Source: a virus
Length of the DNA stretch: 64,000 nt
IMG/VR virus record: IMGVR_UViG_3300032053_013883
Location: 1-64,000 of that record
Strand: one strand, 5' to 3'
The position numbers and the translations under genes are program-made. Below the pieces are notes generated by a model. It had not been told where the DNA came from, did no database searches, and saw only the letters and a list, made by a program, of their open reading frames with translations. Below, piece by piece: positions 129-62,719 of the stretch. How positions within the stretch are numbered: position 1 is the first letter of the stretch; each line of letters starts with the position of its first letter.

Positions 129-887
129 TTACATGAACGCGCCTGAGTGTTCTGTCGGTCCAGAACCTTCAATACCAGCGGCATTATCATAAACGCCAAC
201 CATTACAGCATTACCAGTTCCACTATCAGAATGTGGAATTATTGGTTTATCATTAAAATTTTCCCTGGTTGGGTTAAAATCATCCAAAGGATTATATACC
301 GGATCATATGGAAATTGTCTTATTTGACTTAAATAAGGAGCAAAAGACATTTGCCTGCCTTCATCTAAATAAGAATCTCTTACATCTCCTCTATATTCTC
401 TTTCATTATCAACAATATTTAAATCATTAATATCAGATTTATCATTAAGACATGCTTTCTGAATTAATTTTTTAAAAGTATTTATAACAATTGGATCAAC
501 TCCAGCCCCAAATCCTAATGAATAAGCTTCTTTCATAGCATCTTCATAAGAGGCTCCAAGATATTTGCATTTAATAAAAGCTGAAACAAACCCTGTTCTA
601 TCTTTGCCAGCTTGACAATGTATTAAAGTTGGTCCGCCTTCTAAAAAAATTTTCTTAAAATTTTGATGCATTAAATTTAATAATGATTGTCTTGTTCCAT
701 CTAATGGTAACATAATATGTTTAATGCCAAGCATTTTACAAATTTTATCAATATGATGTCCAGTAATATAATCTAAACTTACAATTTTTTTAATACCTAA
801 CATTTTATGCATTTTAATTACATCTTTAACAGATGGTGCGCTACTACGATAAAGCCCGTCAGTTATTTCACGAAATCTAAGTAACAT
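129..887 (-). CDS. Dual-specificity/tyrosine phosphatase-like protein
   Basis: This 252-residue protein has the Cys-based phosphatase signature HCQAGKDRTG at about residues 90-99 (catalytic Cys91, P-loop Arg97). It also has the usual N-terminal lead-in of this family (GLYRSSAP near residue 11, then a strand IKKIVSLD). The fold belongs to the DSP/SIW14-like tyrosine phosphatase group. A catalytic aspartate candidate is the Asp63 loop. The last 100 residues are polar, Asp/Asn/Pro-rich and match nothing I recognise. The start ATG overlaps the stop of the upstream gene (TAATG) and has GAGG 8 bases upstream. It sits at the end of the virion-gene block, so it may be a virion-carried or late-expressed protein. 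Its substrate (protein, phosphoinositide or nucleotide) cannot be told. Confidence 0.85.
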   Translation of the reverse strand: MLLRFREITDGLYRSSAPSVKDVIKMHKMLGIKKIVSLDYITGHHIDKICKMLGIKHIMLPLDGTRQSLLNLMHQNFKKIFLEGGPTLIHCQAGKDRTGFVSAFIKCKYLGASYEDAMKEAYSLGFGAGVDPIVINTFKKLIQKACLNDKSDINDLNIVDNEREYRGDVRDSYLDEGRQMSFAPYLSQIRQFPYDPVYNPLDDFNPTRENFNDKPIIPHSDSGTGNAVMVGVYDNAAGIEGSGPTEHSGAFM

Positions 888-4677: not shown

Positions 4678-7600
4678 TTATGGCGCTGGAGGTAATCCAC
4701 CTGGACCTGGTGGGGCTCCACCAGGAGGCTCTCCTCCACCTGGAGGTGGTCCACCTAATCCTGGCATTCCTGGTAATGGAGATTCTCCTGGCAATGGTTC
4801 AGCACCAGGAAGTCCGCCACCAGCACCAGCTTCTGTTTGTGGTTCTGGGATTTCATCATCTTCGCCTAATGCACGTAAACTATTAAGATCCATTGTTGTT
4901 AATGAAACTTTTTCTTTATCAGAAATCGCTTTTTGAATGGCTTCTTTGCGCATTTTACGCGTTTCATCTTGCCACTCTAATCCCATTGATCTATATAATG
5001 TATGTAAAGATGCTCTTTTAGAATTTTCATCGCCTTGAGTTAAAGTAACTAAATTATTAATATAGTCACCCGCATCAAATAATGACATATGATTCCAATC
5101 AACATCTGGAACAATTAATTGTTTCTCTCCTCCAGCATAATCATAAAATCCTTGAATCTTAGAAATTGGAGCAAAAATCTTTCTTTTAAGCCAAGAAGAT
5201 AACATATTTCTAAATTGCATATAACGTTGTCTTAATACATCAAGCGCAACTCCACCATTAGCATAAGTTGTGTCCGCGCCGCCGTCCATAAGAACAGATG
5301 GAACCATTAATCCAACATAAATTTCTTTAATTAATTGTGTAATATCTCCAGATATATCATAAATTCCTTGTCCATATCCAACTCTTTCAACAGTAACTCC
5401 TGGATGAGTAAAAATCTTAAAGTCTTTATCGTATTGAGCACTATTACCTTGAATTGTAATTTTGCCATTTCTTCTAGTAATAAATAATCCTGTTGGAACA
5501 GTAAGGCACCAAATTTTACCATTATATTTTTCAATATTTAATAAATTATTTTTTACTTTAGTTTTACTATTTCTTGAGGTTTTATATACGATAGGATTAT
5601 TGCCGTTAGTAGTTTCGGACCACAATAAAGTATATAATGGCAATCTTTTATGATCACCTCTATTTATATATTTTTCATCATCTCTAACAAATTGAGTTGG
5701 AACATATCCGCATTTATAAGCAATTTCATAAACATTATCAGCTAATTGTTTAGACGTAGTATAATAAGCAAATCTATTACTATTTTGTTTTGGATTTTTA
5801 TATGTAGAGCCGTCTCCAGCAACTAATGCATTTAATAATATTTTTAATAGTCTTGGAGAAAGATTTAAAATATCTCTAGAAATTTGTTTAAATGGAGCTT
5901 TTACATTACCATTTAAATCTCCAATATTTTCTTTAAAATGCAAATACAAATCTTTTCCACTAATAACACCATTCCAAATATCTGAATGATTTGGATTAAT
6001 ATGTTTTCTTTTATTTATTGTATTTGAATATGTTTTATCTAAATGTGACATGAAATTTTCAATACACAAAGACATATCTTTTTGATATTTATCAAAACTT
6101 TGAGTTATTCCTGTTGTATATTGGCTTTTATTATTTGTATATAAACAACCTTCACTTAATAAATACCCTAAAAATTCTAAATATGTTTCAACTGGAACGT
6201 TTTTGCCACAAACATTTATATATTTAACATCATCATTGCCTTCATAATTTATTTTTGATTGGAAACGCTTATAATCAGTTAATTTTAAATCTTTTGCTTT
6301 TATCTTTTTGTATGCGCCCCAACTAGATTTTCTTAAACTTCTATTCCCATTATATTCATATTCTTTTTCAGACACCCATAAATCATGATTTGGTGTCACT
6401 TTCATGTCTATTTTATCATTTTTATAATGATACATATCACCAGAATAATCATATAAATGAGCCTTAATGGCTTGATGATATTCTAATTTATTATTTTCTT
6501 GATTTAAACATGCTATTTTAATATTTTTATTAATTTTTGCATTTAATTTTTGTCCTAATGGATTTTTTAATAATACATCATCAGACGTCTCCATTACATC
6601 AGAATATTTTTTAAATCCTTGATTTGTAAGCACTTCTGTAATATCATCATGACACTCAAATACTTCTCTCCAAGCTTCTAAATCTGGATGAGTTGGATGC
6701 AATCCATCTACGCCTTCAGACCCAATTTTAATAAGTGTAAGAGGATTAATCATATTATCTGCTTGCGCAAACTTAGATTCCCTCAATTTGTCGAACAACA
6801 TTAATTGACGAAAAATACAAACAGGTAAACCAGTGCCTCTAATTTCATAAGGGCTAATTCTTCTAGCTAAATGAGATACGTGAAAATTATTAAGTGGGAT
6901 ATTATCGCCACGTTTAACTGAATCAATAATATGTTGATTTAATTGTTTTCTTTGTTCTATATCTGATGGTCTATTTGATCTGACAACTGTTTTTAAATTC
7001 TCATCAGGTTTTAACATAATGATTGGCTCACTAGCAACCACTGTTCTTTTAACAACCATATAATCTGGATTTTGAATTAATAATCTGCTCCACTTTCCTT
7101 TACTCTGATCTAATTCTGCATATACAAATGATTCTCCTAATAACCAATATTCTTGAGCAATTTGAACACAAATATTCATTAAATCAATTTCTTCAATCAT
7201 ATCGTTGAAGAATTTTTCAATATCTTTATTTGGACATTTAATATTTAATTTGCTTATAGGATAAGTTGAATGTAAACTAATAGCATTATGAACAAATGGA
7301 TTAAGTGCAAAAAAACTTCTACACCAAGCATTAATGGTTGCCCTATCTCTTGGTAAACTTAAATTGCTATTTAACCATAATGGAGAATATACTTCTGGGG
7401 TTTGTTTTGCGGTATCTCCTGGACCCCTAAAATTAAAAGACCCGCCGCCGCCGCCGCCGCCACCACTAATTACTTGAGAATGTTTTTTAAATCCGACAGA
7501 AGATGTTACTACGGAATTGGTGGTTAATCCTTCGTTTTTAATAGTTGGACCAGAACCATCTTTATAAATGCCTGCGTTTACTTCATCTGAGAGTACATTT

Positions 7601-7725
7601 TTTCTATATTCAGAAACATTTTGAACCATCAATGCGCTTACTGATGGTGCAGCGTTCCTTTTATCTAAATATGTTTCTGATTTAGCTGGACCCTCCCATA
7701 TTTTTGAAGTTTTATTAATAGACAT
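4678..7725 (-). CDS. Portal protein interrupted by an intein
   Basis: The reading frame encodes 1015 residues, of which 358-761 are an intein (listed separately). Joining the exteins gives a 611-residue portal-type protein. Supporting text lies in both halves: RDRATINAWCRSFFALNPFV near residue 125, and YDISGDITQLIKEIYVGLMV followed by a region typical of portals after the intein. The N-terminal region contains a run of eight Gly residues near 91, encoded by CCG repeats on the plus strand. The C-terminal 60 residues are an extreme Gly/Pro tail. It is directly downstream of the large terminase gene (51 bases), the usual order in tailed phages. The role is the dodecameric DNA channel at the capsid vertex. 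The portal assignment rests on context and pattern recognition rather than on a catalytic motif. Confidence 0.8.
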   Translation of the reverse strand: MSINKTSKIWEGPAKSETYLDKRNAAPSVSALMVQNVSEYRKNVLSDEVNAGIYKDGSGPTIKNEGLTTNSVVTSSVGFKKHSQVISGGGGGGGGSFNFRGPGDTAKQTPEVYSPLWLNSNLSLPRDRATINAWCRSFFALNPFVHNAISLHSTYPISKLNIKCPNKDIEKFFNDMIEEIDLMNICVQIAQEYWLLGESFVYAELDQSKGKWSRLLIQNPDYMVVKRTVVASEPIIMLKPDENLKTVVRSNRPSDIEQRKQLNQHIIDSVKRGDNIPLNNFHVSHLARRISPYEIRGTGLPVCIFRQLMLFDKLRESKFAQADNMINPLTLIKIGSEGVDGLHPTHPDLEAWREVFECHDDITEVLTNQGFKKYSDVMETSDDVLLKNPLGQKLNAKINKNIKIACLNQENNKLEYHQAIKAHLYDYSGDMYHYKNDKIDMKVTPNHDLWVSEKEYEYNGNRSLRKSSWGAYKKIKAKDLKLTDYKRFQSKINYEGNDDVKYINVCGKNVPVETYLEFLGYLLSEGCLYTNNKSQYTTGITQSFDKYQKDMSLCIENFMSHLDKTYSNTINKRKHINPNHSDIWNGVISGKDLYLHFKENIGDLNGNVKAPFKQISRDILNLSPRLLKILLNALVAGDGSTYKNPKQNSNRFAYYTTSKQLADNVYEIAYKCGYVPTQFVRDDEKYINRGDHKRLPLYTLLWSETTNGNNPIVYKTSRNSKTKVKNNLLNIEKYNGKIWCLTVPTGLFITRRNGKITIQGNSAQYDKDFKIFTHPGVTVERVGYGQGIYDISGDITQLIKEIYVGLMVPSVLMDGGADTTYANGGVALDVLRQRYMQFRNMLSSWLKRKIFAPISKIQGFYDYAGGEKQLIVPDVDWNHMSLFDAGDYINNLVTLTQGDENSKRASLHTLYRSMGLEWQDETRKMRKEAIQKAISDKEKVSLTTMDLNSLRALGEDDEIPEPQTEAGAGGGLPGAEPLPGESPLPGMPGLGGPPPGGGEPPGGAPPGPGGLPPAP
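5443..6654 (-). other. Intein with LAGLIDADG homing endonuclease, in the portal gene
   Basis: The insert spans Cys358 to Asn761 of the host reading frame (404 residues), with Ser762 as the +1 residue. Splicing blocks are visible. Block A starts at CHDDITEVLTNQGFKKYSD. Block B is VTPNHDLWV, with its conserved His. Two LAGLIDADG-type helices are LEFLGYLLSEG and LLNALVAGDGS. Block F/G ends in ITIQGN. The penultimate residue is Gly where most inteins have His, so Asn cyclisation must work without the usual His. Both endonuclease acidic positions (Glu of LLSEG, Asp of AGDG) are present, so homing is probably still active. Removal restores a continuous portal sequence. Confidence 0.92.
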
Positions 7726-7776: not shown

Positions 7777-9642
7777 TTAAAATTTCCTTGCAATATATCC
7801 AGTAACAGCAAGCGGCTTATTTTTATTATTTAAAGTTTGATTTTGAGTATTTGGATTATTACTAACAAACCCCTTTGTTATTATAAATTTATAAGCTATA
7901 TATGCGTTAAGTAGGGCACAAAATCCATCATTAGGAGTTGATCCTTTAACATAATGAATTGATGGGTCGCCACCTCTAGAAATTGATGGTTTTATTTCCA
8001 TACTACTACAATGATTAACAAGCCAACCTATTTTTTCATAATCTCCATATGGAAATCTAATATTTCCATTTTTCATTAATTCATATAATTCGCCAATATA
8101 ATAATCTCTTTCAAATACAATTTCTTTTGGAAATGCATCAGCAGAAAATTTTGTATGACCATTTACTTTACTATTTGCTCTTGAAACCATATAACGATCT
8201 CCATGAGCAGTATGCATCAATGCAGAGAAATCATTAGAATATCCAATATCTCCAATTGCTAAATTAACACTATATTGTCTCAATACTTGATCAATCAATG
8301 CCTTTTTGCTATCAATATCATTTCTTTTAAATTTTGTCGCAAATTCAATTGATAATAATTTAGGACCTAATACTGCTAATACAACTGCGGTACTATATGA
8401 CTGTCCAGCAGTTTTAGCCCTATCTAAATTTGCTAATTGTTCTAAATCTGCTCTAGCACCATAATCTATTCCCATAACAACAATAGGAAATTGATTTGGA
8501 TCTATTTTTGCTCTAAATTTTCTTCCGCGATCAGCACATTTTTCCATAATTTCTTCTGGAGTAATTGGGCTAGATTCACCTTGATAAAATTCACCTAAAA
8601 CTTCATTTTGATAAACTCTTTCAGTATTAATTGGATGTACCCCGGCTTTTTCTTTAATAATATCTTCTTTTTGAAATTTAGGCATATACAATTGATTAAT
8701 ATGAAATCCAATCATATGACAATCTGGATCTTCTGGATTTTTTAAACCAACCCACTTACCTCTTTCGGCGGCTTGTCTTTTATCTTGTTCAAACCCACAA
8801 TGAGTACATTTTACAATGTATCCATAAAGCCAAATTTTTTCCCATTCATCACTACCTGGAGTATAAAGAGGAAAATGCTTTTCGCATTTTTCACAGCCTA
8901 AATAAAAATATTGTTGAGAAGACGATGCCCACATTTTATGAAACCCGGAACTTTTTCCTCTTGGAGTTCCAAAATAAACTTGAACGCCTTGGCTTATTTT
9001 TCCATATTTTGCTGTTGTTAAAATTTTTAATACATTACCAATTGCATCTTCATTTGTATCTTGAACTTCATCCATAAATAAAATATCTCCGGTACGACCT
9101 CTAAGCCTATCTCCATTTATACCAGTAGATTCTATCCACAAATGATTACCGCCAACAAATTGTTTAAAGTGCAATGAATCATTTGTATCACTTGTTTGAT
9201 CTAATAATGATTGCATATAAGATTTATTTTTTGATTTGTTTGCATTTTCATCTTTACGAAGAGATGAAGCAATCATTGGATTTAATTTACTTTTAGAATA
9301 AGCTGCAGCAAGTTCTAATTGGGGGAATGTATGAATTATTCTAGCTGGTGATTTATCTTTATTTCCAAATAAACCGCTACCCATAAAATACATTTCAAGA
9401 GCCGCTGCCATTGTAGTTCCACCAACCTGACGACCTTTAACTAAAATAACTGGCTTTGCATCTGGCTCTAAAGCCTTAATTCCAATATAACGATAAATAT
9501 CGCTAAAAGGCTTGTACCCATTATTATGTAATCTAAATGGTTCACCATCTAAAGTTAAATAATTCTCTACGAACGCCACTGGATCTATATTTAATAATGA
9601 TTTTTTTAAATCTGAAAATAACTTATCGTCTGAACTTATCAT
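7777..9642 (-). CDS. Terminase large subunit (DNA packaging ATPase/nuclease)
   Basis: This 621-residue protein has a Walker A-like motif GRQVGGTT (70-77) and Walker B ILFMDE (187-192). A coupling-type motif FGTPRG follows near 225. A zinc-binding insertion uses Cys250, Cys253, Cys279 and Cys282. The C-terminal RNase-H-like nuclease domain starts at VVMGIDYG (Asp393), with a later acidic residue in IGDIGYSND. The enzyme translocates DNA into the prohead and cuts the concatemer. It lies directly upstream of the portal gene. The zinc insertion between ATPase and nuclease recalls GpA-type terminases. I saw no small terminase subunit with certainty; the two preceding genes are candidates by position only. 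Confidence 0.93.
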   Translation of the reverse strand: MISSDDKLFSDLKKSLLNIDPVAFVENYLTLDGEPFRLHNNGYKPFSDIYRYIGIKALEPDAKPVILVKGRQVGGTTMAAALEMYFMGSGLFGNKDKSPARIIHTFPQLELAAAYSKSKLNPMIASSLRKDENANKSKNKSYMQSLLDQTSDTNDSLHFKQFVGGNHLWIESTGINGDRLRGRTGDILFMDEVQDTNEDAIGNVLKILTTAKYGKISQGVQVYFGTPRGKSSGFHKMWASSSQQYFYLGCEKCEKHFPLYTPGSDEWEKIWLYGYIVKCTHCGFEQDKRQAAERGKWVGLKNPEDPDCHMIGFHINQLYMPKFQKEDIIKEKAGVHPINTERVYQNEVLGEFYQGESSPITPEEIMEKCADRGRKFRAKIDPNQFPIVVMGIDYGARADLEQLANLDRAKTAGQSYSTAVVLAVLGPKLLSIEFATKFKRNDIDSKKALIDQVLRQYSVNLAIGDIGYSNDFSALMHTAHGDRYMVSRANSKVNGHTKFSADAFPKEIVFERDYYIGELYELMKNGNIRFPYGDYEKIGWLVNHCSSMEIKPSISRGGDPSIHYVKGSTPNDGFCALLNAYIAYKFIITKGFVSNNPNTQNQTLNNKNKPLAVTGYIARKF

Positions 9643-11348: not shown

Positions 11349-11945
11349 TTAAAACCAAACACTATCATAAATATTTCTTCCTTCATTTGAAGTTCCAAAA
11401 TATTTATTTGTTCTATTGCGATTATTATCTTGATCTTCTATTGGTTTTTGACCGTCTGGCAATCCCATAATTGGAGATTCTCCAGGCTGTAAAGCCATTT
11501 GATTTATAGCTGCAGGTGCTTTTTTCATAACTAATTCATCTGAATCAGGAGACATAAGATCTTCTCCAACTGGAATTTCTGAAGTTTCCGGGTTTCTTTT
11601 ATCATAAAAATCTGATCTACCGCCAAATCCAGCATATGGAGTTCCATCTACATTTTCACCAGCAGAGCCTGGAGGAATTCCGGTAATAGAATCATCAATT
11701 GGAAAATCTATTGAATTATTATCTATTGCATTTTTTAAAATTACAGATAATAAGGCTAATTTTCTTTTCTTCATAAGTTTCTTTTTCTTTTTCCTGAAAT
11801 CAGAAACGCTTTTATATTTATCCATATTTTGATAAAACCCAGAACCTGGTCCTTGTTTAGGTGGACCATTTACGCCTTCTGTTTCATAAAGGTCATAATT
11901 TTTAAAAAATAACCCTCTTGATTGAACATGATCTGATTTTTTCAT
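11349..11945 (-). CDS. Unknown 198-residue virion-block protein
   Basis: This is a polar, Pro/Asp/Asn-rich protein with a basic cluster [13 protein letters not shown] near residue 50 and otherwise little predicted order. No motif is recognised. The ATG overlaps the stop of the nucleotidyltransferase-like gene, so the two are coupled. Confidence 0.7.
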
Positions 11946-12694
11946 TTTTTAGCCTTATTATAATATGGCATTAATTCATCAATAACTGGGATATAAGGCC
12001 ATAAATTCATTTCAGTTAACAATTTAGCAGTTTTATCAGCATTATATGTTGCTGATTTAGTTAGTTTTTCCATTAATGATTTTGGTGTAGCAAATTGAAT
12101 TGATACTGGATTATCACTAACCCATAAAGAAACTCTTGGGCTAATGTTAAAATCTAATTTAGTAGATAAATATATTAATCTAACAACTCTATTTCTATGA
12201 GACATTAATGTTATATGCGGATCCAAACAAGTATCTATTATTTTATTTTCAATATCTTTAATCCCCCTTTTCGTAGGATCTAATATTTCTTTTAAATCAA
12301 AAGAACATAATAAAGAATTACAAGTAAAATCTCTACTAAACATTTCTTTTTGTAATTCGGTAGGATTTTTAATTCCCATATTATTTAATATGCTATTAAT
12401 ATTTGGAGTGTTAAAATTTGAAGAAAAATCTACACTTAAATTTCCAAATGTCATTGTGCTATGACCATCTGATTTTGTTTCAAATGTTAAATTATATTTT
12501 TTTCCTAATTCATCAGCAACTACATTTGCTAATGTAAAAATAGATTTATCTCCGGTAGTAATATCTAGATCAGAAATTTGTTTTAATTTTCCAAGCAATT
12601 TATCACGAGGAGTCCCTCCGCATACAAAAACTGGAGAAGTTTCCCATTTTATATGTAATGCATTAATTTCATTTAACAAATCTCGTAGCTTCAT
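11942..12694 (-). CDS. CCA-adding/poly(A)-polymerase-like nucleotidyltransferase
   Basis: The 250-residue protein carries the head-domain hallmarks of class II CCA-adding enzymes and bacterial poly(A) polymerases. [10 protein letters not shown] lies near residue 27. SDLDIT follows near 42, with both metal-binding aspartates. SRDFTCNSL lies near 125 and matches the family RDFTxNAL motif. An RNA-binding-like helical part (about 160-250) is shorter than in full CCA enzymes, which usually exceed 380 residues. The reaction would be nucleotide addition to an RNA 3' end or to another acceptor. It is unexpectedly embedded among virion-type genes, overlapping both neighbours by 1-4 bases. The substrate cannot be inferred. 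Confidence 0.82.
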
Positions 12695-48960: not shown

Positions 48961-50295
48961 TTAATTGCTTTCAGTATATTTGTCTAAATTAATCGAACGA
49001 TTTCCACTTAATAAATTTTTATCTTTCATAAGAACATTTAATGTTTTAATAATATCTTTTTCTGTTGGAACTTTTCTATTATTAGAAAGTGCCTCAAACA
49101 TTGAAGAAATATATAATTCTTTCAAATACCCATAGGAAAATTTATATTTAACACATAAAATTGATAATTCTTTAATTTTTTGTATTGGAATTATATTTCC
49201 AAACCATTTTTTCAAATAAGAAAACGACATATCTTTATTTGGCAAAGAAATTTTAAATTTTCTATCAAACCTGGAAGGTCTATCTGTAATGTTTGATTGT
49301 AAAGCATTTACATTATTTGCCGTAGCAATTACAAATAATCCATTTTTAGCAGTAATGCCATCCATTAAATTCAAAAATGAAGAAATATCTATTTTCTGTA
49401 AAAGAGAATCTAAGTCTTCAAAATATAATAATGACGGGCTTTGTTCTTCTGCATATGAAAAAGCCTCCCTAATAGATTCATTACTGGCATCAGAAGATAT
49501 TGTTACGGGCTTAAAATTATAAGAAGAAATAATTGTTCTTATAATAGAAGTTTTACCATTTCCAGGATCTCCATATAATAAAACCCCCCTTTTCCAAGGT
49601 ATTTTATTATTCAAATAAAATTCTTTAGAAGATAAGAAATTTTCAACTATATTTCTAATATCTTTTTTTGTATCTTCTGGCAAGAACAAATCTTCCCAAG
49701 AAGATTCTTTTGTATATGGAATATCTTCACCTTCCATTACTTTTATATGAAGATTGCCACGATCTCTTTGCTGAATCCAATTATCAAATTCATTTCTTAA
49801 CTTAAGATAATTAAGATAATTTTTATCTGAAAGAATAATAAAAAAACTTATTTCATCTTCATATTGATTTCCTTTATGAAATAAAGCGGCATGAATAAAT
49901 TCAACATTATTACTTTTAACAAGAAAAACTCCTTGCCCAAAGAATTTTTCATAATTATTATGATCAGATTTCCATGAAACAATGGATTCTTTATCTAAAC
50001 ATGTTATTTTTATGTTTTTATCTTCGCAAAATTTCAAAAATTGACCATCAATCATAATTCTATTATGAATAAATGAGGTCAAATTATTTTTATCTTTTAA
50101 CGCTTTACTGTAATTAACAGTAACCCAATTCATCAATTCAACAAAATTAGATTTTGGTCTACCTTCATCTTTCAGATGATTAAATTCTGAATTTGAAGAA
50201 GAAATAATATTTAAACGATCTAATGTTAGATGTTCTTCTAACGAATAGTTTTCCGACAATGAAACATCTAATAAATTTTTATTTTTAGTGGACAT
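48961..50295 (-). CDS. BCS1-like AAA+ ATPase
   Basis: The 444-residue protein has a unique N-terminal half and an AAA+ domain from about 200. This contains WKRGVLLYGDPGNGKTS (Walker A 242-250), PSLLYFEDLDSLL (Walker B), the sensor-1 strand LFVIATANN and the arginine-finger stretch RPSRFDRKFKISLP. The pattern is closest to BCS1-type ATPases, which remodel or translocate folded proteins. No protease or membrane segment is fused. It could power the M41-like or ClpP-like phage proteases, though no docking motif is evident. Confidence 0.85.
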   Translation of the reverse strand: MSTKNKNLLDVSLSENYSLEEHLTLDRLNIISSSNSEFNHLKDEGRPKSNFVELMNWVTVNYSKALKDKNNLTSFIHNRIMIDGQFLKFCEDKNIKITCLDKESIVSWKSDHNNYEKFFGQGVFLVKSNNVEFIHAALFHKGNQYEDEISFFIILSDKNYLNYLKLRNEFDNWIQQRDRGNLHIKVMEGEDIPYTKESSWEDLFLPEDTKKDIRNIVENFLSSKEFYLNNKIPWKRGVLLYGDPGNGKTSIIRTIISSYNFKPVTISSDASNESIREAFSYAEEQSPSLLYFEDLDSLLQKIDISSFLNLMDGITAKNGLFVIATANNVNALQSNITDRPSRFDRKFKISLPNKDMSFSYLKKWFGNIIPIQKIKELSILCVKYKFSYGYLKELYISSMFEALSNNRKVPTEKDIIKTLNVLMKDKNLLSGNRSINLDKYTESN

Positions 50296-52183: not shown

Positions 52184-52603
52184 ATGAATATATCTATACA
52201 TTACCTAGATATAGATTTACGATACTCTACTATTGGTCAATATTTTGAAGTAGTGCTAAATGATTTAGCCTGTGGCGCTGATACCAAAGCATATATAATA
52301 AGTATATATGTAAAATATAAAAATGCCACACATGACCTATCCAAAGATAGCCTCACTTTACTCTACGCGCAAGCTAGAAATAAACAAGACTTTTCTATTT
52401 ATCAAAATGTAGCTGATTGGGCATTCTATAAAAATACTTTATTTCCAGAAGAATCATCTTTTAAAGATTATTATGATACATTAGGAAAGCTATCATATAA
52501 TTCATGTTATAAATTAATAAACAAACAATGGCCACTTTTTGAGGAACTTGCCGAAAATTTTGTTATTTTAGAACATCAAGCAAAAAAACTTTTAAGAACT
52601 TAA
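52184..52603 (+). CDS. Plus-strand protein resembling a bacterial hypothetical family
   Basis: This 139-residue protein is mainly helical. The order NVADWAFYKNTLFPEESSFK, then YYDTLGKLSYNSCYKLINKQ, then WPLFEELAENF recalls a family of bacterial proteins of unknown function, in which a similar sequence of motifs recurs. This is my impression, not a search result. It is divergent from topA and convergent with the gene at 52592 (12-base overlap). Its own promoter suggests host-polymerase expression, possibly early. Confidence 0.68.
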   Translation: MNISIHYLDIDLRYSTIGQYFEVVLNDLACGADTKAYIISIYVKYKNATHDLSKDSLTLLYAQARNKQDFSIYQNVADWAFYKNTLFPEESSFKDYYDTLGKLSYNSCYKLINKQWPLFEELAENFVILEHQAKKLLRT

Positions 52604-55376: not shown

Positions 55377-55748
55377 TTATTTTTTAATAATTTCATCATC
55401 AGAATCTATTAAAATAATAGTGTCATTAGGTTTGAATCCGAATTTTTTTGCTGTTCCATGTGGAAATTCAACAATAAGATCTGTTACATCATTAACACCA
55501 ATTAGAGATGTAGAATATGGTTCACCTTTACGAATATCTACTATTTTACCTTCTTTACAAAAAATAATATCTAATGGGCTTGGAGTATTATGCATCCAAA
55601 AATTATTTACTTTTGGCTTACTATAAACAAATGACATTACTGGTGGTGGCCATGGCTGGTACATCAGCCCAGCCTCTTGTTCTTTAGGAGATACTGCTAA
55701 TAAAGTTGAAAAAACTTTTTCCGAGATACAGATATAACCTTTTTTCAT
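55377..55748 (-). CDS. DUF192-family protein
   Basis: This 123-residue protein carries the family core: GLMYQPWPPPVMSFVYSKPK, then NNFWMHNTPSPLDIIFCKEG, and VEFPHGTAKKFGFKPND. DUF192 proteins are small beta-barrel proteins in bacteria and archaea, usually with a signal peptide. Here there is none, which suggests a cytoplasmic or virion location. Its function is not known in any organism. It overlaps the previous gene by 4 bases. Confidence 0.87.
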   Translation of the reverse strand: MKKGYICISEKVFSTLLAVSPKEQEAGLMYQPWPPPVMSFVYSKPKVNNFWMHNTPSPLDIIFCKEGKIVDIRKGEPYSTSLIGVNDVTDLIVEFPHGTAKKFGFKPNDTIILIDSDDEIIKK

Positions 55749-57235
55749 TGTAAACTTTTAAATAATTGAAGTAAATCTGAAACTTTTTTACGTCTCATAT
55801 ATGAGGTTATGAGCTTCTTATCATTTTCATCTACATTTACTTTATGACCAAGAAATCTTCCATTTTCTAATAAGGCAATTACATCATTAGGATCTTCCAT
55901 GCCTCTCATTAATAATACTAATGGTTGCATTAGCTTTTTAATTTCAAATAATTTATTTTCTATCAAAGCAATTCCAGCAGCCACCTCTGGCTTATTAATA
56001 TCACTTTCTAATTTATCCATTAATTCATCAACTTCTTTACGACAAGCAACACTAGCATCATATATGTCTATTCTTGAGGCTACAGTTTGGTCTCCCCCTA
56101 ATATTTGAAGTTTCTTTTTTAGAAGCCATTTTTTTATTGAATTTGCTGCAAATTTTTGCAATTCATCAGCATTTTTAAAGCCTTGTTTTGTTTTTGAAAT
56201 TGCTTTTATAATATCTTCAAGATTATCTTCTGGGAAACGTCCAGCTAATTGTACAGCTTGTACGAAATTATTATATTCTCTTTGAATATCAGATATTGAG
56301 GCTTCATTTTTACGCTGTTTAGCTCGAACATTTTTAAGCTTATTAAGGCTATCAAATAATTTTGGATGTTGCGACCCCATAAGTTGGATAATGGCAGTTG
56401 CCATTGCCATATGATCTGATAAAGTATTGGGTGTAATTTTATTTTTATCTGAATTATTTACTGGCGGTATACGCACAGATGTTTGCGCTTCTGGCACCAC
56501 TGGTGCAGATTGGTTAGGCTGACTTACTGTTTCGTCTTTATCTTCAGTTATTGTCGTTGGCGCAGCGGCTACTGGTGGCTTATCGCCTTGTGTTAGTTCT
56601 GGCTTATCTCCAAAAAACATATCATAATTTGCATATAATTCTTTTAATGAACGAAATGAAGTAATAGCACTATTTAATAGTGCATGAGCTTTAAATATGC
56701 CAGATTTTGTTTCATCTTCATGACCAGAAGATTCTAAAATCTGAGACTCAAGGTCTTTAAGATTTTTTTCAATCTTAACAAGTGCAGAAAGCAAACTTCT
56801 TCTATGTGAGCGTTTGCGCCCAGCTTCACCAAAATATGGACCTTTAAGGGCGCTCCAAAATCTTGTTAAGCGATTTGATGCTTCGATAGATAGAAATTCA
56901 TCATCAAAATTTAACTCGCCCTTTTTATTAATTTTATCTTGCTTAATCTGTTTAAATTGTCTAGAATATTCTACTTGTCTATTAGATAATTCTAAGCTTT
57001 CATTAGCAAGCTGCTGAAATCTACCAGTTAGAACTGATAATATTTTGGCTGGATCAGAAGGAATTGGCTCCGTAATTTTTCCTTTTTGGGCAAAAAATTT
57101 AGATGGCGTGCCAACCATAAGTCTTTTAAAATTAGCAAGATCAGAAACAAACTCACCAAATTGTTTGTTCCACATCTTTTTATCCAATCTTAATTGTTTT
57201 TGAATTGGATCTTTAACTTCAGCAAATCTATCCAT
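55745..57235 (-). CDS. Unknown large helical protein with Pro/Thr-rich linker
   Basis: The 496-residue protein has a helical N-terminal domain (1-210), a polar Pro/Gln/Thr linker (about 225-275) and a helical C-terminal domain (280-496). Its architecture and opening MDRFAE resemble the protein at 3238-4605. Together with its place outside the virion block this makes a duplicated virion or assembly protein possible. No enzymatic motif is visible. Confidence 0.7.
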   Translation of the reverse strand: MDRFAEVKDPIQKQLRLDKKMWNKQFGEFVSDLANFKRLMVGTPSKFFAQKGKITEPIPSDPAKILSVLTGRFQQLANESLELSNRQVEYSRQFKQIKQDKINKKGELNFDDEFLSIEASNRLTRFWSALKGPYFGEAGRKRSHRRSLLSALVKIEKNLKDLESQILESSGHEDETKSGIFKAHALLNSAITSFRSLKELYANYDMFFGDKPELTQGDKPPVAAAPTTITEDKDETVSQPNQSAPVVPEAQTSVRIPPVNNSDKNKITPNTLSDHMAMATAIIQLMGSQHPKLFDSLNKLKNVRAKQRKNEASISDIQREYNNFVQAVQLAGRFPEDNLEDIIKAISKTKQGFKNADELQKFAANSIKKWLLKKKLQILGGDQTVASRIDIYDASVACRKEVDELMDKLESDINKPEVAAGIALIENKLFEIKKLMQPLVLLMRGMEDPNDVIALLENGRFLGHKVNVDENDKKLITSYMRRKKVSDLLQLFKSLQ

Positions 57236-57265: not shown

Positions 57266-57880
57266 TTATGGTAATATTTTATCAATAATGCCATATTTTA
57301 AAGCTTCAATAGCATCAAAATAATGATCTCTTTTACAAATATTTTTAATTTCTATTAATGAATGACCAGTATGCTTTGCCATTATTTTCATTAAAACATC
57401 ATTTCTGTCATTTAAAAAATCAAAAAAATTCTTAGAACCAGCATGATCAGAATCTCCCATTAATGGGAATGCACATTGAATTCCATGAATCATTATAGAT
57501 GAATGTTTAAATGCACAACGTTTACCCTTAGTTCCACAAGCAACCATAATTGCGGCAGCAGAATATGCTTGCCCTAAACAAATGGTTTGAATTGGCGCCC
57601 TAATCATTTGCATAACATCATAAATATTAAGAAATGCTGAAACATCGCCTCCATTTGAATTTATATGCAAATAAATATCATCTTCATGATTCAAATTATC
57701 ATAATATAAAAGTAATGCTGATAATGCGGAAGCCGTATCAGAAGTAATATCTTCATTTACAAAAATTAATCTATTTTTAGTTAGTTTTGTATATGGTCCT
57801 TCCGGCAAATTTTCGCCATATCTTCCTGGCATAGAAATTGAAACATTATTTTCATTATCTGAACTTTTAGTTTTTGCCAT
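57266..57880 (-). CDS. clpP: ClpP-family serine protease with intact catalytic triad
   Basis: This 204-residue protein has the ClpP fold and a complete triad. Ser107 lies in CLGQAYSAAA, His132 in SSIMIHG and Asp185 in KRDHYF. INSNGGDVSAFLNIYD and EALKYGIIDKI are the other family signatures. It should form ring-shaped tetradecamers, alone or with the inactive paralogue encoded 2 bases upstream. Its partner unfoldase (host ClpX/ClpA or a phage AAA+) is unknown. Head-maturation proteases in some phages share this fold, but those usually lie beside capsid genes. Confidence 0.9.
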   Translation of the reverse strand: MAKTKSSDNENNVSISMPGRYGENLPEGPYTKLTKNRLIFVNEDITSDTASALSALLLYYDNLNHEDDIYLHINSNGGDVSAFLNIYDVMQMIRAPIQTICLGQAYSAAAIMVACGTKGKRCAFKHSSIMIHGIQCAFPLMGDSDHAGSKNFFDFLNDRNDVLMKIMAKHTGHSLIEIKNICKRDHYFDAIEALKYGIIDKILP

Positions 57881-57882
57881 AA

Positions 57883-58473
57883 TTACCTTTTATTATGAGA
57901 GATTATTTTATCTATGAATCCATATTTTAATGCTTGCTGTGCTGTCATAAATTGTTTCTTTTCAAAATCCTTCATAACTTTAGATAAAGTATGTCCAGTA
58001 TGCTTTGCTAATATTTCCATTTTTCTTTTATTATCTTTTTTAATTTGATCTAAAACTGATTTGGCATCAGTTAAATCAGAGTAAGACATTTTATCGTGAA
58101 TAAGTTGACTTACACAAAATATAGAATTTTTCGTAGCAAATCTCATTCCCGGAGTTCCGGCACAAAGTATAATTATTGATTCAAATGCGGCTTGTCCTAT
58201 ACAAATAGTTTCAATTGGTGCCTGAATCATTTGCATCATATCATATAGCATAAAGACGCTTCTAATATCGCCGCCGCCAGAATTTATAATTAATGTAATT
58301 TTCTCTTCTGAATTTTCGAAATCTTTTAATATTAAAGACGCAACTAAATCTGTTGCAACTTTTTCATCTATAGGTTCATAGATGAAAAGCATTCTATTGC
58401 TTGCTAATTTTAGATAAATATCAATAATATATTCTTCGCCATTTTCTGATGTTTCAGTTACTAGTGTATTCAC
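57883..58473 (-). CDS. Inactive ClpP paralogue (ClpR-like), triad lost
   Basis: This 196-residue protein has the same fold markers as the next gene (INSGGGDIRSVFMLYDMMQM, CIGQAAFESI, ALKYGFIDKI). All three catalytic positions are replaced: Phe98 for Ser (GQAAF), Ser122 for His (FCVSQ) and Lys173 for Asp (EKKQF). It cannot be a serine protease by the ClpP mechanism. Known dead ClpP relatives (ClpR in cyanobacteria and plastids) form mixed rings with ClpP. The close coupling suggests the same here. Independent loss of all three positions argues for long-term conservation as a structural subunit. Confidence 0.88.
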   Translation of the reverse strand: MNTLVTETSENGEEYIIDIYLKLASNRMLFIYEPIDEKVATDLVASLILKDFENSEEKITLIINSGGGDIRSVFMLYDMMQMIQAPIETICIGQAAFESIIILCAGTPGMRFATKNSIFCVSQLIHDKMSYSDLTDAKSVLDQIKKDNKRKMEILAKHTGHTLSKVMKDFEKKQFMTAQQALKYGFIDKIISHNKR

Positions 58474-58477
58474 TTAT

Positions 58478-58831
58478 TTATGCCTTCTTTCGTTGACGAC
58501 TTTCAGTTTCTCTTTCTTCAGCACACGATATACATAATAACACTGACGGATTAAATTTTAATCTTTTTTCTGGGATTTCTCCAAGACAATCTTCACATTG
58601 TCCATAAGTAGATTCATCAATTTTTTGGAGAGCAACATTAATATTATATATTTTAGCGTTTGCCCTAGTACATAATTGACTATTTAATTCAATTAAAACA
58701 TTACCTTGAATTTCATCAGTTTCATCACCATCTATATCTATATCTGTTTGAGTGGTAGTTTGGCTTATAAGCTGTTGTTTTTCTTGTAACAATTTATCTT
58801 TCATATTTAAAACAAAATTCTTTGAATACAT
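58478..58831 (-). CDS. DksA/TraR-type zinc-finger protein
   Basis: The 117-residue protein ends in a TraR/DksA zinc finger (YGQCEDCLGEIPEKRLKF and LCISCAEE; Cys79, Cys82, Cys100 and Cys103). It is preceded by a helical hairpin (about 1-75). DksA-type proteins enter the secondary channel of RNA polymerase and change promoter selection. Phage TraR-like proteins can act without ppGpp. It likely tunes host RNA polymerase during infection. The ATG overlaps the stop of the previous gene by 1 base. Confidence 0.88.
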   Translation of the reverse strand: MYSKNFVLNMKDKLLQEKQQLISQTTTQTDIDIDGDETDEIQGNVLIELNSQLCTRANAKIYNINVALQKIDESTYGQCEDCLGEIPEKRLKFNPSVLLCISCAEERETESRQRKKA

Positions 58832-62269: not shown

Positions 62270-62719
62270 ATGGAAAAATGTGAGAAAGTAGCCGCGCTAT
62301 ATGTTGCAACCCTAAAAGCAGTTAGCTTAATACATCAACACGGACATTGGACAACAAATGGTGATAATTTTTATGGAAGCCATTTATTATTTGAAAGATT
62401 ATATAAAGCATCATTAGAAAGTTTAGATGGCGCCGCAGAAAAATTTATAGGAATATTAGGTCCAGCCTGCCTTGATTATAAATTACAAACAGAGTTACTC
62501 AACAAAATTTTAAATAAGTACAGCCGCCTTGAAGATTCAAGCGCCGAAATGTCCTTAGCTGCTGAAAAAGATTTTATAAAATTAGGCAGCGATGCTTATG
62601 AATGCTTTGAGGCAGAGGGACACATGACATTAGGATTAGATGATTTCTTAATGGCTACTTCTAGTAAAAGTGAAGAAGCTGTATATCTATTACAGCAAAC
62701 ATTAGAAGAAAATTCTTAA
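62270..62719 (+). CDS. Dps/ferritin-like protein
   Basis: The 149-residue four-helix protein has the Dps pattern HGHWTTNGDNFYGSHLLFERLY, followed by a helix SLDGAAEKFIG. His26, His38, Asp53 and Glu57 sit where ferroxidase ligands are expected. Dps proteins store iron and shield DNA from oxidative damage. Here it could protect phage DNA or act in the virion. It has AGG upstream at an acceptable distance and is convergent with the next gene (4-base overlap). Confidence 0.78.
   Translation: MEKCEKVAALYVATLKAVSLIHQHGHWTTNGDNFYGSHLLFERLYKASLESLDGAAEKFIGILGPACLDYKLQTELLNKILNKYSRLEDSSAEMSLAAEKDFIKLGSDAYECFEAEGHMTLGLDDFLMATSSKSEEAVYLLQQTLEENS

What the first reader, a model, noticed from the sequence alone, without database searches (positions are those of the whole stretch)
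57266..58473. Tandem ClpP and catalytically dead ClpP paralogue in a phage
The downstream gene keeps Ser107/His132/Asp185. The upstream one has Phe98, Ser122 and Lys173 at the same positions. This is the ClpP/ClpR situation of plastids and cyanobacteria. A phage heteromeric Clp ring could change host proteolysis or make a structural chamber.
Basis: partly seen in the sequence, partly recalled or inferred. Interest (0 to 1): 0.82.

Follow-up and report, generated by a model that had tools for sequence, protein, structure and literature searches.

The report
Paired active and dead phage ClpPs
A lineage of uncultivated, mostly very large bacterial viruses carries two adjacent ClpP protease genes, one intact and one whose catalytic residues have been replaced but which is strictly conserved, and sequence evidence suggests that the two proteins build one lopsided protein-degrading barrel.

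Summary
Both ORFs are clear ClpP-family proteins: one has lost Ser, His and Asp of the triad, the other keeps them. One correction: the Phe is residue 97, not 98.

This is a fixed feature of a lineage. All 38 viral records that carry the pair (37 other contigs, 43-481 kb, plus the window) hold exactly two tandem ClpPs, dead first. There are 32 distinct pairs. None of the dead copies has Ser, His or Asp/Glu in the matching triad columns; all the active ones have Ser+His, with Asp (23) or Glu (9). Each type is one clade. Dead copies evolve under purifying selection, dN/dS about 0.04-0.22, with a new set of invariant residues. No dead-type copy was seen among the top-80 cellular hits or nine other phage ClpPs read.

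The two co-vary beyond shared ancestry (partial r 0.65, highest of 45 gene pairs), most strongly handle to handle, the ring-ring contact region. Dead copies keep the axial-loop N-terminus; active ones lost it.

I infer a hetero-oligomeric Clp core with a non-catalytic ring serving gating and docking, analogous to mycobacterial ClpP1P2 and to ClpP/ClpR. Assembly, unfoldase and substrate are untested.

The parts
57883..58473 (-). Catalytically dead ClpP paralogue (196 aa, GTG start): F97/S122/K173 at the triad positions. It starts at the equivalent of the mature ClpP N-terminus and keeps the axial-loop segment.
   Evidence: PF00574 E 1.4e-45; AF2 pLDDT 87, pTM 0.80, N-terminal hairpin E4-8/E14-18.
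57266..57880 (-). Active-type ClpP (204 aa): S107/H132/D185 intact. N-terminal ~32 residues low-confidence in the model and not axial-loop-like.
   Evidence: PF00574 E 7.1e-47; AF2 pLDDT 83, pTM 0.75.
58478..58831 (-). DksA/TraR zinc-finger protein immediately upstream in the same gene run; neighbour, not part of the proposed complex.
   Evidence: PF01258 2.1e-9; phrog_54; found 0.9 kb upstream in 23/23 relatives.
55745..57235 (-). Fast-evolving 496 aa protein of unknown function just downstream (30 nt gap), found in 22/23 relatives; possible substrate or partner, not shown.
   Evidence: 22-44% identity; its distances do not co-vary with the handles.
48961..50295 (-). AAA ATPase (PF00004), the only AAA unfoldase-like protein seen near the pair; conserved in 23/23 relatives. 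Candidate but unsupported partner.

Best explanation
The two genes encode the two subunit types of a hetero-oligomeric, phage-specific Clp peptidase core. The downstream subunit supplies all catalysis. The upstream subunit is a pseudo-enzyme that folds like ClpP, has refilled its active site with a new conserved set of residues, keeps the axial-loop N-terminus and the ring-contact Arg, and meets the active subunit across the equator through its handle. Most likely it forms a non-catalytic ring (or most of one) that gates the chamber and docks an AAA+ unfoldase, probably the host's ClpX/ClpA/ClpC, so that substrates enter on the dead side and are cut on the active side. Shown here: both folds (predicted), loss versus retention of the triad, invariant pairing, single origin of each clade, purifying selection, co-variation at the handles, and no recognisable phage-encoded Clp ATPase or ClpS. 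Inferred: physical assembly, stacked homoheptameric rings rather than mixed rings, host-unfoldase docking, and a role in remodelling host or phage protein turnover.
For: In 38 of 38 viral records exactly two tandem ClpPs in the same order, overlapping or at most 40 nt apart, giving 32 distinct pairs. Dead clade 100/98 and active clade 100/99 support, both on the phage side of a 100/100 branch from cellular and other phage ClpPs. Dead copies dN/dS about 0.04-0.22 (NG86) with invariant or near-invariant new residues R71 32/32, E98 31/32, T114 32/32, Q123 31/32, L124 32/32, while cellular ClpPs have T/S71, M98, P124. Dead copies keep E8, T10, G13, E/D14, D18 of the axial loop and R170; active copies do not keep the loop pattern and keep R170 in fewer than half. 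AF2 models: dead has an N-terminal hairpin, active has a low-confidence N-terminus. Foldseek best matches include M. tuberculosis ClpP1P2 chains, TM 0.91-0.92 for the dead model. Partial co-variation of dead and active 0.65, first of 45 gene pairs, stable in jackknife; handle-handle 0.71 versus 0.45 +/- 0.07 for rate-matched head columns, 0 of 300 as high. No ClpB_D2-small or ClpS hit in 17 records. Precedent: in M. tuberculosis, ClpP2 is the docking scaffold, its catalysis is dispensable, and a 'forced asymmetry' strain grows (PMC9067928).
Against: No oligomer was modelled or measured. The co-variation rests on 19 related loci and cannot distinguish stacked from mixed rings with certainty; with a different set of control genes and ranked distances the pair ranked second of 78. 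Both subunits lost the canonical Gly-rich handle strand, so the ring contact must be unusual. The hydrophobic docking clefts do not clearly differ between the subunits. All records are metagenomic; no host or unfoldase partner is known, and several records are fragments, so a missed divergent ATPase is possible.
Confidence: 0.6

Rival explanations
1. Mixed heptameric rings (dead and active subunits alternate within a ring), as in cyanobacterial ClpP3/R, with the dead subunit tuning the number of active sites or the pore rather than forming its own ring.
For: Same paired-gene logic; head-head co-variation is also above background (0.41; 0.27 after removing handles, p 0.005).
Against: The strongest signal is handle-handle (0.71; 0.61 after removing heads), the ring-ring rather than the side-by-side contact; complementary gain and loss of the axial loop suits whole-ring specialisation.
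Confidence: 0.2
2. The dead subunit is an anti-host factor that enters host ClpP rings and poisons or redirects them (dominant negative), while the active subunit works alone.
For: Inactive ClpP subunits can co-assemble in known systems; jumbo-phage ClpP has been proposed to act on host proteins (PMC7824862).
Against: Host-type handle motif lost in the dead copy, invariably paired with the active copy, and co-varies with it.
Confidence: 0.1
3. The pair is a virion-maturation protease or structural chamber, like the S14-type head maturation proteases of many phages.
For: PHROG best hits of both proteins are labelled head maturation protease (phrog_94), because those are ClpP-fold proteins.
Against: Portal (4678-7725) and terminase (7777-9642) lie about 48-53 kb away; neighbours are DksA, HU, FtsK, topoisomerase I, AAA. 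Both proteins are full-length ClpP-like.
Confidence: 0.05
4. The dead copy has an independent function (peptide binding, scaffold, regulator) as a homo-oligomer and merely sits in the same operon.
For: The refilled active site (E98/R71 nearly invariant) could be a new ligand site.
Against: Co-variation with the active copy is stronger than for any other gene of the block in the main analysis, including DksA, which lies 4 nt upstream of the dead gene in the window.
Confidence: 0.1
5. The upstream gene is a decaying duplicate.
For: Triad lost.
Against: 32 distinct intact copies, dN/dS about 0.04-0.22, new invariant residues.
Confidence: 0.01

Closest known systems
Mycobacterium tuberculosis / M. 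smegmatis ClpP1P2 (asymmetric two-ring Clp)
   Same: Two ClpP paralogues with functional asymmetry, one docking ring and one catalytic ring (PMC9067928); the dead model's best structural matches include these chains.
   Different: Mycobacterial ClpP2 still has its triad; the phage dead copy has lost all three residues and refilled the site. Phage-encoded; no own ClpX/ClpC found; both handles remodelled.
ClpP/ClpR of cyanobacteria, plastids and apicoplasts
   Same: Catalytic plus obligately non-catalytic paralogue; apicoplast ClpR, like the phage dead copy, has no prodomain (PMC7966870).
   Different: Not shown to be related by descent: no ClpR is named among the best 60 PDB sequence hits, and the phage pair arises on its own branch away from the cellular ClpPs sampled (no ClpR in that tree).
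Single ClpP genes in jumbo and Lak phages (Lak, SCTP-2, Phosso, Atu_ph07)
   Same: Phage-encoded ClpP of S14 type, previously noted as patchy (PMC7824862, PMC6102473).
   Different: The nine read here have an intact SHD triad and no dead tandem partner found in the fetched stretch; by annotation, Atu_ph07 carries its own ClpX, ClpA, ClpB and ClpS, which were not found here.
S14-type phage head maturation proteases (phrog_94, 1684, 2976, 133)
   Same: ClpP fold; best PHROG hits.
   Different: Not next to portal or terminase here; two copies, one dead.

Membership tests
ClpP family (PF00574, MEROPS S14) | ClpP fold and profile match over the full domain | tested here: met
   Both E < 1e-44 over profile positions 3-181 / 10-179; Foldseek TM 0.85-0.92 (dead) and 0.78-0.84 (active), normalised by query length.
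ClpP family (PF00574, MEROPS S14) | Ser-His-Asp triad in the downstream copy | tested here: met
   S107/H132/D185; 32/32 homologues S+H, D in 23 and E in 9.
ClpP family (PF00574, MEROPS S14) | Gly-rich handle strand GGxxGQ used for ring-ring contact | tested here: not met
   Absent in both phage copies, kept in nearly all sampled bacterial ClpPs.
ClpR-type non-catalytic subunit | ClpP paralogue lacking catalytic residues | tested here: met
   0/32 dead copies have S, H or D/E in the matching triad columns.
ClpR-type non-catalytic subunit | Common descent with cyanobacterial/plastid ClpR | tested here: inconclusive
   No ClpR sequences could be fetched for the tree; none is named among the best 60 PDB hits.
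ClpR-type non-catalytic subunit | Assembles with catalytic ClpP in one core | not testable with these tools
   Only indirect: tandem order, co-variation at handles.
Mycobacterial-type asymmetric ClpP1P2 | Two homoheptameric rings stacked, unfoldase docks on one ring only | not testable with these tools
   Handle-handle co-variation and axial loop only in the dead copy are consistent.
Phage S14 head maturation protease | Gene in the portal-protease-capsid module | tested here: not met
   Portal and terminase about 48-53 kb away; the conserved neighbours that could be annotated are nucleic-acid genes and a DUF192 protein.

The most novel reading that the evidence does not exclude
A lineage of largely jumbo phages built its own asymmetric Clp protease in which one whole ring is a dedicated pseudo-enzyme. 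Its active site has been converted into a new conserved (E98/R71-centred) feature, and it reprograms host unfoldases to feed substrates to a phage-only catalytic ring during infection.
Probability: 0.35. Interest if true: 0.82.

Novelty: new variant of a known kind. Interest (0 to 1): 0.66.

Why it matters
Obligately inactive ClpP subunits have been described in photosynthetic lineages and apicoplasts, where their role is still called poorly understood (PMC9067928), and functional asymmetry of ClpP cores is an open question in mycobacteria and beyond. A compact two-gene viral version with 32 natural variants offers a simple system to learn what a dead ring does. It would also be, as far as I could find, the first virus shown to carry a catalytic/non-catalytic ClpP pair, which points to deliberate control of proteolysis by jumbo phages. 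Such a core could be a tool or target for redirecting bacterial protein turnover.

Tried and rejected
Pseudogene decay: rejected by dN/dS and conservation. Displaced triad: rejected by alignment with no nearby gaps. Phage ClpX/ClpA partner: AAA_2 hits 30-45 kb upstream looked promising; the one scanned proved to be a 370 aa ATPase with AAA_5 as its best match (MoxR-like by my reading), and no ClpB_D2-small or ClpS was found. Salt-bridge replacement D97-R171: the two co-occur in 16 dead copies, but only 2-3 independent changes exist, so the association is not significant on the tree. Cellular dead-type homologues: none among the best 80 of at least 577 bacterial hits; those are ordinary SHD ClpPs apart from one SHN. 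Net charges of the two proteins are not complementary. Literature searches for a phage ClpP/dead-ClpP pair found nothing. No named isolate is close: the listed terminase and topoisomerase I hits are below 40% identity.

Full report
Observation. The window is 64 kb of a 65.3 kb linear virus record. It carries portal and large terminase genes, so it is a tailed phage. At 57883-58473(-) and 57266-57880(-) lie two full-length ClpP-family genes 2 nt apart, 39% identical to each other. Against E. coli ClpP (S97/H122/D171), the second gene keeps S107/H132/D185. Alignment shows replacement, not displacement.

Family. Scans of IMG/VR with the dead protein, the active protein and an alignment of dead copies brought in 37 further contigs (43-481 kb; many above 200 kb, so jumbo phages; several shorter ones are probably fragments). 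Every viral record with the pair carries exactly two ClpPs, in tandem, dead first, overlapping or separated by at most 40 nt (for records outside only the fetched stretch was read). After removing identical sequences there are 32 pairs. In dead copies the Ser column holds D19/N8/F2/K2/Y1, the His column S15/G7/T6/N3/D1 and the Asp column R16/K8/T2/I2/Q2/L2. Active copies have S 32, H 32 and D 23/E 9. The surrounding block (HU-like, DksA, ClpP-dead, ClpP-active, 496 aa protein, DUF192, FtsK, 437 aa protein, topoisomerase I, AAA) is largely syntenic in the 23 loci compared. Nine ClpPs of other phages, including Lak and the 634-642 kb uncultured phages, all have the SHD triad. Among bacterial genomes the best hits are about 38% identical, and the 80 fetched are ordinary ClpPs.

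Origin and selection. A 96-protein tree puts all dead copies in one clade (100/98) and all active copies in another (100/99), with cellular and other phage ClpPs across a 100/100 branch. With the cellular proteins as outgroup, this is one old duplication before the lineage radiated. Dead copies are under purifying selection (NG86 dN/dS about 0.04-0.22 in close pairs; synonymous sites are near saturation, so values are rough). They have acquired new near-invariant residues around the former active site and elsewhere (R71, E98, T114, Q123, L124 in E. coli numbering). R71 and E98 lie beside the substrate strand and oxyanion hole in ClpP (established knowledge), so I infer a closed, non-hydrolytic cleft; geometry was not measured.

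Division of labour. Dead copies begin at the mature ClpP N-terminus and keep much of the axial-loop pattern (E8, T10, G13, E/D14, D18) and the ring-contact R170 (29 of 32). Active copies have a divergent N-terminus and lost R170 in more than half. AlphaFold2 models agree: the dead copy has an N-terminal hairpin (pLDDT 87 overall), while residues 1-32 of the active copy are mostly below 50. Foldseek matches for both include M. tuberculosis ClpP1P2 chains. Both copies lost the canonical GGxxGQ handle strand.

Do they belong together? I compared pairwise distances for ten genes of the syntenic block in 19 loci, and for each pair of genes removed what the other eight explain. Dead-active had the largest residual correlation (0.65, 1st of 45, permutation p < 0.0002), larger than for either with its immediate non-ClpP neighbours. 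It stayed first in every jackknife and in most alternative gene sets (second of 78 in one ranked variant). By region, the largest value was handle against handle (0.71), against 0.45 +/- 0.07 for rate-matched head columns (0 of 300 as high), and it persisted after also removing both heads (0.61). Handles form the ring-ring contact in ClpP, so this points to dead and active subunits facing each other across the equator. The loci are related and few, so this is supportive, not decisive.

Unfoldase. No ClpX/A/B/C C-terminal domain and no ClpS was found in 17 records, most of them above 200 kb. The weak AAA_2 hit that was scanned is a 370 aa ATPase with AAA_5 as best match, MoxR-like by my reading. 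A host unfoldase is therefore the likelier motor; the conserved AAA at 48961-50295 is an untested alternative.

Comparison. In mycobacteria, ClpP2 supplies docking and its catalysis is dispensable, and a strain with docking only on ClpP2 and catalysis only on ClpP1 grows like controls (PMC9067928). The phage pair looks like the natural end-point of that asymmetry. ClpR of photosynthetic lineages and apicoplasts is also non-catalytic, and the apicoplast one lacks a prodomain (PMC7966870), but common descent was not testable. Phage ClpP has been reported as a gene of patchy distribution (PMC7824862), and no report of a phage dead/active pair was found. I therefore class it as a new variant of a known kind.

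Limits. Assembly, stoichiometry, motor, substrate, host and timing are unknown. All records are metagenomic.

Noticed in passing
L019, L025-L028, L031, L032, L036, L066 (active copies): In 9 of 32 active copies the triad Asp is Glu (Ser-His-Glu); all nine sit in one subclade of the tree. Unusual for ClpP and worth an activity test.
   Followed up: partly
window 55745-57235 (-): A 496 aa protein directly downstream of the ClpP pair, conserved in position but only 22-44% identical; the fastest-evolving of the ten block genes compared, and a possible Clp substrate or virion protein.
   Followed up: partly
window 48961-50295 (-): AAA ATPase with a long N-terminal part, conserved 41-66% in all 23 relatives, function unknown.
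   Followed up: partly
L037:766-1878 (-), L039:1405-2517 (+): A 370 aa ATPase (AAA_5 best match in the one scanned, MoxR-like by reading) about 30-35 kb upstream of the ClpP pair on the same strand in these two relatives; similar AAA_2 hits lie about 30-45 kb upstream in others.
   Followed up: partly
window 11942-12694 (-): Poly-A polymerase head domain (PF01743) next to the terminase/portal region.
   Followed up: no
window 129-887 (-): Tyrosine-phosphatase-like protein (PF13350) in the virion gene region.
   Followed up: no
window 52184-52603 (+) and 62270-62719 (+): Two ORFs on the opposite strand to almost everything else, conserved in most relatives (43-62% and 40-69% identity); the second matches a DNA-binding PHROG.
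   Followed up: no
L126 and L149 (bacterial contigs): Tandem ClpP pairs in a deltaproteobacterial MAG and in Nonomuraea, all four with the SHD triad; ordinary multi-ClpP systems, useful as controls.
   Followed up: no
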